NCBI GenBank assembly: GCA_029263415.1
Contig: JAJCXN010000044.1
Coordinates: forward strand, 1 to 64,000
DNA: 64,000 nucleotides
DNA from: Acidobacteriota bacterium
Lineage (GTDB): Bacteria > Acidobacteriota > Thermoanaerobaculia > Multivoradales > Multivoraceae
Reading direction: 5' to 3'
The notes beneath the pieces are model-generated. The model had not been told where the DNA came from. It did no database searches and worked only from the letters and a program-made list of their open reading frames with translations. Shown here one piece after another: positions 511-1,608 of this stretch; the first letter of the stretch is position 1, and each line of letters starts with the position of its first letter. Both the position numbers and the translations under genes were made by a program.

Positions 511-634
511 TTTGGACGCACTGCTCTTCGCTCTGGGTGTAAAACCCAGGACAAAGCGCGGGGAGCGCTGGATCATACGAACTCCACCGCCCAACTGTAA
601 ACCCCTACCGCAGTCAAATCCCAAGAACCTTGGC

Positions 635-742
635 GCAAGACCCCATGGTCGTACCACGGGGTCTTGCTTTTGTTGAATCTCGCTCCAGGCGCCTTCGGCA
701 CGTGGCGAGGAGAAGCGGAGACCGGGGAAGGTTGCGGAGGCG
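635..742 (+). repeat. Structured intergenic repeat, copy A
   Basis: First of three copies of one element. Hairpin 1 pairs GCAAGACCCC (635-644) with GGGGTCTTGC (658-667), extended by TGGT/ACCA around a CGT loop after one mismatch. A linker TTTTGTTGAAT follows. Stem-loop 2 has outer stem CTCGC (679-683) with GCGAG (705-709), unpaired TCCAG and GTG, and an inner stem GCGCC/GGCAC around TTC with one mismatch. A purine-rich tail runs to about 742. Hairpin 1 followed by TTTT could also act as a plus-strand intrinsic terminator, although no plus-strand gene ends here. Confidence 0.7.
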
Positions 743-1469
743 TCTTGGTGAGAGTGGCTAGCCCTCCCCTCACGTGACTGATTGGGCCCTGGCTTGAATG
801 CTCTTGGAGCTCGAGATTCTCCAGAGCTGCAACGTCATCGAGTCGTCCCACGGACGCAGTTGGTGCATGCAGCCCTCACAACGTTGTTCGGCCTTTTGGG
901 GATCTCACGACAACCATGGATGGCAGGAGCCTTGACTGATCTGGATCGCACTATCGCTGCTTCGCCACGGATTGCGGCGCCACACGCATCGAACGCGAAC
1001 ACGCCCCAGGCCCTCCTACCTCGGAAGTCCTCGGCGTCTGATCCGCCTCACAGCAACCGTGGCATCACGTAGAAGACCCCGGGAGAAGGAACCGCTCGCG
1101 AACTGGCGATGCCGTACCAGCGCAGCACTGCTGGCCGGCGTTGACAGCAGCACTAGCTATGAACACCTGCCCCTCTCACGCCCGAGCCTTAGACCTTCGG
1201 TGGCCTCAAGGGCCAACCCCCTGTGCCTCAATGATCGCGGCCCACCGACAGAGCTCGGGTCAATAGCCCAGCCCGTGGCCCTCTACCACCGAGCACGATC
1301 CGGCCCGCTTCACATCAACACCACAACCGGACGCCTGCTTCTCGCAGCGAGGCCCAAGCAACGGAGCGCACAAAACCTAAGCAACAAGGCCGCACCCAAT
1401 CTCTCCACCCTCTGCCTCTCTCCCCTTCTCCTCGGTCTCTGCCTCTCTCCGCGCTCTGCCTAGGCCGCT

Positions 1470-1608
1470 CTGTCCCTTATCCCTCCCTGTCCCCTCTCCC
1501 TCCCTGTCCCCTCTCCCTCCCTCCCTATTCTCCTCGCGACGCGCCGAAGGCGCTTGGAGCGAGCAACGAAAGCTCCAGAAGCCGTGATTCCATCACGGCG
1601 TCTGGAGC
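1470..1608 (-). repeat. Structured intergenic repeat, copy B, abutting tRNA-Gly
   Basis: Second copy, on the minus strand. Hairpin 1 (1608 to 1572) is GCTCCAGA-C-GCCGTGAT, loop GGA, ATCACGGC-T-TCTGGAGC: 16 pairs with one mismatch. Its first six bases are also the 3' end of tRNA-Gly. Then comes the linker TTTCGTTG and stem-loop 2 with outer stem CTCGC/GCGAG, unpaired TCCAA and GTC, inner stem GCGCC/GGCGC and loop TTC. The tail is extremely G-rich on this strand. Hairpin 1 plus the T-rich linker could terminate transcription after tRNA-Gly. Confidence 0.72.
1481..1530 (-). repeat. 17-bp tandem repeat and G-tract array (tail of copy B)
   Basis: On the plus strand CCCTGTCCCCTCTCCCT occurs twice with a 17 bp period (from 1485 and from 1502), followed by further CCCT units. 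The minus strand therefore carries many GGG and GGGG tracts separated by one to three bases, enough to form G-quadruplexes. Copies A and C of the intergenic repeat also end in purine-rich tails, but without this exact tandem unit. Confidence 0.75.

What the first reader, a model, noticed from the sequence alone, without database searches (positions are those of the whole stretch)
511..1602. Conserved tRNA-tuf operon split by a 1.1 kb gap with facing repeats
The order tRNA-Thr(UGU), Tyr, Gly(UCC), Thr(GGU), tuf matches the E. coli thrU-tyrU-glyT-thrT-tufB operon, where spacers are short. Here about 1.1 kb lies between Gly and Thr(GGU), with repeat copies A and B near its ends in opposite orientation. 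This suggests an insertion, perhaps a composite one bounded by the repeats, and it may separate tuf expression from the upstream tRNA promoter.
Basis: partly seen in the sequence, partly recalled or inferred. Interest (0 to 1): 0.6.

Follow-up and report, generated by a model that had tools for sequence, protein, structure and literature searches.

The report
Gene-end double-hairpin repeats widen tRNA-tuf gap
The long gap between the tRNA-Gly and tRNA-Thr/tuf genes is not a transposon insertion but the border between two separately driven gene sets, widened in this bacterium and carrying two copies of an apparently undescribed double-hairpin DNA repeat that sits against gene ends at about 40 places in its genome.

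Summary
In detail: the gap is 1,092 nt, with facing repeats at both ends. The composite-insertion reading does not. Each repeat is an 84-nt double-hairpin element, one of about 40 in this genome and found in no other of 297 genomes of the phylum (two weak hits in one sister genus). Hairpin 1 (17-18 bp) has a copy-specific but self-complementary base; hairpin 2 is conserved; a private G-rich tail follows. In 21 of 24 copies the hairpin-1 end is nearer a gene (median 5.5 nt; tail side 337 nt), often at a stop codon or tRNA 3' end. Copies at both ends of a gap therefore face each other by rule; at least three other gaps do the same. The interior is single-copy, without Pfam hits.

tuf was not newly cut off. 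Relatives with the intact operon have a 203-367 nt gap, and most show a promoter-like site there; in 7 of 13 genomes it lies 57-65 nt before tRNA-Thr(GGU), as here (shuffles: mean 0.02). The gap is nevertheless enlarged in this family: at least about 0.9 kb of unrelated repeats in genus g3, 31-51 kb in g2.

Unexplained: in g2 and g3, tRNA-Gly is followed by an inverted copy of its own 3' end.

The parts
1..126 (-). 5' part of tuf (EF-Tu); the contig begins inside the gene
   Evidence: [35 protein letters not shown]; window = contig C44 from base 1
436..510 (-). tRNA-Thr(GGU)
   Evidence: ARAGORN, Rfam RF00005 69.8 bits
572..601 (-). promoter-like site of the Thr(GGU)-tuf unit: TTTACA-18-TATGAT, -10 ends 61 nt before the tRNA
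   Evidence: scan hit, 10 of 12; same place in 6 relatives. Promoter activity is inferred.
633..716 (+). element A: hairpin 1 (635-667), linker TTTTGTTGAAT, hairpin 2 (679-709) and GAGAA end; hairpin 1 faces the Thr-tuf promoter
   Evidence: R1 91.2 bits, R2 52.9 bits; fold -39.8 kcal/mol, z -3.7
717..760 (+). short G-rich tail of element A
   Evidence: sequence; C 0.50, G 0.15 on the minus strand in 703-762
717..1525 (.). gap interior, tails included: single-copy DNA without recognisable gene
   Evidence: no other copy in the genome at E<=0.01; no Pfam hit at E<=1 for six ORFs
1363..1525 (-). G-rich, C-poor tail of element B, with a 17-nt tandem repeat at 1470-1522
   Evidence: G 0.43-0.60, C 0.08-0.17 on the minus strand; TRF
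1526..1608 (-). element B: hairpin 1 (1608-1572; its outer arm is the tRNA-Gly 3' end GCTCCA), linker TTTCGTTG, hairpin 2 (1563-1533) and GAGAA end
   Evidence: R1 93.7 bits, R2 67.4 bits; fold -46.1 kcal/mol, z -4.8
1603..1677 (-). tRNA-Gly(UCC)
1732..1817 (-). tRNA-Tyr(GUA)
1884..1958 (-). tRNA-Thr(UGU)
2104..2871 (-). RNA methyltransferase gene (rlmB-like) used to find this locus in relatives
   Evidence: ORF; matches in 60 of 60 related genomes, orthologue-level scores in most
40169..40255 (+). third full copy of the element in the window, with a perfect 17-bp hairpin 1 and purine-rich tail
   Evidence: R1 80.1 bits, R2 64.2 bits, sequence

Best explanation
The gap is the intergenic border between two transcription units: Thr(UGU)-Tyr-Gly, which probably ends at element B, and Thr(GGU)-tuf, which probably starts from its own promoter at 601-572. 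The border is ancestral in the order but short there; in this lineage it grew to 1.1 kb. Both ends carry a copy of a species-specific gene-end element: hairpin 1 (17-18 bp, copy-specific base) against the gene, an 8-12 nt linker, a conserved hairpin 2, and a private G-rich tail pointing into the gap. Because hairpin 1 always faces the gene, copies at both ends face each other. Shown: anatomy, genome-wide family, placement rule, paired changes in both hairpins, shared promoter position. Inferred: B acts as a hairpin-cluster terminator or 3'-end stabiliser of the tRNA transcript, and A shields the Thr-tuf promoter from transcription arriving from either side. Read on the other strand the tails are C-rich and G-poor, so they might also serve as Rho-loading sites; this is untested. 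How the interior DNA was gained is not known.
For: Gene order and gap. About 40 copies, absent from the rest of 297 phylum genomes at E<=1e-4. Stem pairing within copies 0.95 at the base although left-arm identity between copies is 0.34 there; arms swapped between copies pair 0.46. Paired changes: A1, 12 of 24 pairs; A3, 5 of 10 pairs; no shuffle reaches these. Placement: hairpin-1 side closer to a gene in 21 of 24, medians 5.5 and 337 nt; sign-test p 1.4e-4. Of the 14 copies with a gene 3' end on the hairpin-1 side, 12 have the stop codon within 16 nt of the hairpin base. Tail pooled G 0.46, C 0.15 in the first 50 nt. Other facing pairs: C41:257767+/258576-, C39:268383+/268943- and one near C28:82248. 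Promoter position shared by 7 of 13 genomes, shuffles mean 0.02, maximum 2. Relatives' gap 203-367 nt.
Against: No expression data: terminator, insulator and promoter roles are inferred. The tails after hairpin 1 are not consistently U-rich; only A has a TTTTGTT run. Ten of the 24 copies with neighbours called on both sides lie upstream of a minus-strand gene's 5' end rather than at a 3' end, where a terminator against the next gene would be odd unless a promoter lies between. Gene calls came from a simple codon-usage script, so some distances may be off. The interior DNA's origin is unexplained. R1 was built from A, B and four other copies, so their scores are not independent.
Confidence: 0.7

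Rival explanations
1. Composite insertion: a mobile segment about 0.95 kb long, bounded by A and B as terminal inverted repeats, jumped between tRNA-Gly and tRNA-Thr(GGU).
For: Facing repeats 92% complementary over 36 nt; gap longer than in order-level relatives.
Against: Most of the 40 or so copies are single or tandem, not paired. Interior has no second copy and no transposase-like ORF. A and B differ in hairpin-1 sequence, unlike the two ends of one recent element. Similar facing pairs bound unrelated gaps; one lies at two convergent stop codons.
Confidence: 0.07
2. The elements are REP-like mobile palindromes (miniature elements moved in trans by a Y1/RAYT-type or other transposase); the A/B pair is a loosened REP dimer and any effect on transcription is incidental.
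For: Dispersed, palindromic, mostly between co-oriented or convergent genes, as reported for REPs (PMC3733652). Three Y1_Tnp matches in the genome. An 88-nt tandem array exists.
Against: No GTAG tag; the CGTC and CCA motifs are in reversed order relative to CGTC REPs; no element within about 1.5 kb of the Y1 genes. Placement within a few nt of gene ends and a copy-specific hairpin base are not REP features I know of.
Confidence: 0.15
3. The gap holds a decayed gene or a small RNA gene, and the two elements are simply its borders.
For: ORFs of 163 and 96 aa exist in the gap.
Against: No Pfam hit at E<=1, no Rfam hit apart from the tRNAs at gathering score, no second genomic copy; strong base skew over the ORF region is better explained by the tail of B.
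Confidence: 0.06

Closest known systems
REP / BIME repeats (GTAG- and CGTC-tagged palindromes, PMC3733652)
   Same: Short palindromic repeats in tens of copies, extragenic, mostly downstream of or between genes, often paired in opposite orientation.
   Different: Two hairpins instead of one, 84 nt instead of 20-40, hairpin 1 with copy-specific base, private G-rich tail, very tight placement at gene ends, no GTAG, CGTC/CCA in the wrong order, no nearby Y1 transposase.
Hairpin-cluster intrinsic terminators (PMC8355165)
   Same: Two hairpins less than 15 nt apart, close behind the stop codon, poly-U not required.
   Different: That class is defined by structure and position only; here hairpin 2 and the end motif are conserved in sequence across the genome, and many copies lie on the 5' side of a gene.
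E. coli thrU-tyrU-glyT-thrT-tufB operon (PMC6134099)
   Same: Same four tRNAs and tuf in the same order.
   Different: In E. coli/Salmonella one promoter precedes the four tRNAs (PMC6134099). Here and in most relatives examined a promoter-like site precedes tRNA-Thr(GGU), and the Gly-Thr spacer is always the long one.
rtT repeats of the E. coli tyrT operon (recalled, not tested)
   Same: Tandem repeats behind a tRNA that contain pieces of the tRNA 3' end; compare the ~100-nt tandem units behind tRNA-Gly in genus g2.
   Different: Recalled rtT units carry direct copies; the g2 units carry inverted copies.

Membership tests
Composite transposon / IS-bounded insertion | Transposase gene or remnant within or at the ends | tested here: not met
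   No Pfam match at E<=1 in six gap ORFs
Composite transposon / IS-bounded insertion | Clean empty site in close relatives | not testable with these tools
   No same-genus genome offered; relatives share about 56-67% protein identity in the rlmB-like gene
Composite transposon / IS-bounded insertion | Bounding repeats occur mainly as pairs around cargo | tested here: not met
   About 40 copies, at most four facing pairs
GTAG REP | Unpaired GTAG tag at one end of a single palindrome | tested here: not met
   No GTAG in the alignment of 46 matches
CGTC REP | 5' CGTC, 8-9 bp stem beginning with A/T pairs, loop 4-5, 3' tail CCA | tested here: not met
   Hairpin 2 reads TCCAA-GCGCC-TTC-GGCGC-GTC: CCA 5', CGTC 3', 5-bp stem without A/T (definition in PMC3733652)
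REP with RAYT | Tyrosine transposase gene flanked by the repeats | tested here: not met
   Three Y1_Tnp loci carry no element within the DNA fetched, up to 1.5 kb each side
Hairpin-cluster intrinsic terminator | Two stable hairpins <15 nt apart within 80 nt behind the gene end | tested here: met
   B: hairpins 8 nt apart, starting at the tRNA 3' end, z -4.8; 12 of 14 copies at CDS 3' ends start within 16 nt of the stop
Hairpin-cluster intrinsic terminator | Transcripts end there | not testable with these tools
   No RNA data
Known RNA family (Rfam 15) | Match to a curated model | tested here: not met
   Only tRNAs above gathering score; nothing on the elements in six loci at E<=0.5
tRNA-tuf operon of the thrU-tufB kind | Gene order Thr-Tyr-Gly-Thr-tuf on one strand | tested here: met
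   same order in 11 order-level relatives

The most novel reading that the evidence does not exclude
Hairpin 1 is built from the target: the element places an inverted copy of the gene's own 3' end behind the gene, so that each copy makes a custom hairpin whose gene-side arm is host sequence. Support: conservation falls from loop to base (0.74, 0.51, 0.34) while pairing stays 0.90-0.98; the outer arm of B is the tRNA-Gly 3' end and that of L186 is the end of a coding sequence; in 17 tRNA contexts of the same family, 15 of them at or assigned to tRNA-Gly in genera g2 and g3, an inverted copy of 11-21 nt of the gene's own 3' end follows, against at most 9 elsewhere and 10 in the control. A snap-back or template-switch step during spread would produce this.
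Probability: 0.2. Interest if true: 0.75.

Novelty: new variant of a known kind. Interest (0 to 1): 0.45.

Why it matters
It corrects the reading of the tRNA-tuf locus (border, not broken operon) and exposes a compact genome-wide repeat family that marks gene ends with near-perfect but copy-specific palindromes. Such a family offers a natural set for asking how bacterial terminator hairpins arise and stay complementary, and whether copying of a gene's own end makes them. The inverted tRNA-Gly 3' copies in sister genera raise a concrete question: how that tRNA folds when its trailer is complementary to it.

Tried and rejected
Pattern of hairpin 2 in 2.9 million viral contigs: no hit. Named relatives by rpsB: mostly distant phyla; useful only because L060 (JAJKHS010000060.1, 13,732 bp) has the length of G027:C60 and the same pyrH and frr identities, so the two are very likely the same contig, which places the order near a MAG labelled Thermoanaerobaculum, hence Acidobacteriota. 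Long hairpins as this organism's usual terminator: only 4 in 64 kb, 3 of them elements, so rejected. attC of integrons, group IIC intron targets and HEARO/omega RNA were considered from memory and dropped: the arrangement differs, and no Rfam match was found. The idea that the g2 repeat behind tRNA-Gly is a dispersed family: in G010 it is local to tRNA-Gly. Direct tRNA-Gly 3' copies before Thr(GGU) in g2/g3, as an integrated island would leave: none in the loci held. An early script that read gene distances by GC3 was replaced by a codon-usage one. Literature searches gave no description of this family; only open-licence papers are searchable.

Full report
1. What is there. On the minus strand the window reads rpsB-tsf-pyrH-frr-rlmB-like, tRNA-Thr(UGU), Tyr, Gly(UCC), a 1,092-nt gap (1602-511), Thr(GGU), tuf. 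The window is the start of contig C44 of a 6.9-Mb draft genome.

2. The repeats are complete elements. Searching the genome with A gave copies that share more than the 36-nt arms. Six were aligned, a two-hairpin structure was written by hand, and pair counts were far above shuffles and slid versions: 93.7% cells paired, 12 pairs with changes on both sides, 0 of 500 shuffles as high. A covariance model (R1) lists 44 matches at E<=1, of which a few are antisense echoes of palindromic copies. A model of hairpin 2 alone (R2) lists 40 at E<=0.1, eight of them in one 88-nt tandem array split between contigs C56 and C36. So the family has about 40 members at roughly 30 places.

3. Anatomy. Hairpin 1: 17-18 bp, loop 2-4 nt, apex near GTGRT...AYCAC. 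Its base differs from copy to copy yet stays paired: from loop to base, left-arm identity between copies is 0.74, 0.51, 0.34, pairing within a copy 0.98, 0.90, 0.95, and pairing of arms swapped between copies 0.81, 0.57, 0.46; 12 of 22 stems have no mismatch. This set of 22 was chosen as the well-formed copies, so the pairing figures are upper estimates. Linker 8-12 nt. Hairpin 2: consensus CTNGC-TCCAA-GCGCC-loop-GGCGC-GTC-GCNAG-GWGARG, 85% column identity, also with paired changes, sometimes with a longer inner arm. Then a G-rich, C-poor simple-sequence tail, different in each copy (pooled G 0.46, C 0.15 in the first 50 nt). Long hairpins are otherwise rare: 4 in 64 kb, 3 of them elements.

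4. Placement rule. With genes called by a codon-usage script trained on the window, the hairpin-1 end lies a median 5.5 nt from a gene boundary and the tail end 337 nt; hairpin 1 is the nearer end in 21 of 24, p 1.4e-4. Where the neighbour is a gene 3' end, 12 of 14 copies begin within 16 nt of the stop codon, several with the stop inside the stem. B begins inside the CCA end of tRNA-Gly; another copy (L188) follows a tRNA. Only 1 of 24 lies between divergent genes. Copies at both ends of a gap must therefore face each other: besides A/B this is seen at C41:257767/258576 (both at convergent stop codons; L204, L207), C39:268383/268943 and, with weaker scores, near C28:82248. The facing orientation needs no composite element.

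5. The interior. 717-1525 has no second copy at E<=0.01, and its longer ORFs have no Pfam match at E<=1. Much of it is G-rich on the minus strand, as if the tail of B were long. Its origin is open.

6. Relatives. The locus was fetched from 40 related genomes. In 11 order-level relatives of other families that keep the full order the Gly-Thr(GGU) spacer is 203-367 nt, the longest or among the longest spacers of the operon. A promoter-like site with at least 9 of 12 matches ends 57-65 nt before Thr(GGU) in this genome, in G002 (sister genus) and in five relatives of three other families; shuffles give a mean of 0.02 and a maximum of 2 of 13. Four or five others, mostly of family f6, have a weaker site 137-176 nt upstream; G026 shows none. 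So separate transcription of Thr(GGU)-tuf is very probably ancestral.

7. The same border in the same family. G002 (g3): the tRNA-Gly contig ends 225 nt behind the gene and the Thr(GGU) contig ends 759 nt before it, both in the same roughly 115-nt repeat, so its gap is at least about 0.9 kb and unrelated in sequence. Genus g2: Gly and tuf are 31-51 kb apart on one strand, with Thr(GGU)-tuf-Trp intact. The border has thus grown in different ways within this family.

8. Inverted gene ends. In genera g2 and g3 the DNA 20-30 nt behind tRNA-Gly is an inverted copy of the tRNA's own 3' end: 21 exact nt in six g2 contexts, 11-20 in most others, as far as 8 in one; the fold of the G010 stretch reaches -74 kcal/mol. 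G003 has 13 nt behind tRNA-Tyr. Among the other tRNAs in hand the longest is 9, and a reversed-query control reaches 10. In G015 the unit is repeated seven times at 100 nt. In G010 it is local to tRNA-Gly, not dispersed. Related genomes share ancestry, so these are not independent events. They do show that hairpins whose gene-side arm is the gene itself recur at this place.

9. Distribution and novelty. R2 finds nothing else at E<=1e-4 in 297 genomes of the phylum and two weak hits in G002 within 72 genomes of the order; those lie in repeats with tRNA-like fragments. Large searches use stricter filters and may miss diverged copies. Rfam has no match. Compared with published REPs (PMC3733652), the tag, size, structure and transposase link differ. 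Closest in working are hairpin-cluster terminators (PMC8355165). I call it a new variant of a known kind.

10. Verdict. Observation confirmed; insertion reading only partly supported (the gap did grow; nothing shows a composite element). Function of the elements is inferred, not shown.

Noticed in passing
L150, L153, L155, L179, L054, L048, L157, L050, L043, L055, L181, L152, L148, L159, L156 (behind tRNA-Gly); L169 (behind tRNA-Tyr): Inverted copy of the tRNA's own 3' end, mostly 11-21 exact nt, 20-30 nt behind tRNA-Gly in same-family genomes; it would compete with the tRNA fold.
   Followed up: partly
L152:567-1272: Seven 100-nt tandem units behind tRNA-Gly in G015, each with the inverted tRNA fragment.
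   Followed up: partly
G000:C56 end (379752-380120) and C36 start (1-318): 88-nt tandem array of the element, split by a contig break.
   Followed up: partly
window 44538-44580 (+) and about 40405-40460 (+): Weak hairpin-2 hit (15.1 bits, E 0.063) and a degenerate copy by eye behind the 40169 element.
   Followed up: no
L183, L197, L200, L211 downstream of the element: Degenerate second copies with an extended arm (GCATCCCGTGGGACTCC...) follow many elements after the G-rich tail.
   Followed up: no
L247 about 1395-1425 (genome G002): Sequence GCGTCATTCCCGCGAAGGCGGGAATCCA, which fits the CGTC REP pattern (CGTC, stem, CCA), in a sister genus.
   Followed up: no
G000:C4:161262-162500: The 16S rRNA match comes in two pieces (model 9-873 and 939-1223), with a stretch between that does not match and the 3' end missing.
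   Followed up: no
G001, G004, G010, G015 between tRNA-Gly and tRNA-Thr(GGU): 31-51 kb of DNA at the place of the gap in genus g2, same strand and order kept on both sides.
   Followed up: partly
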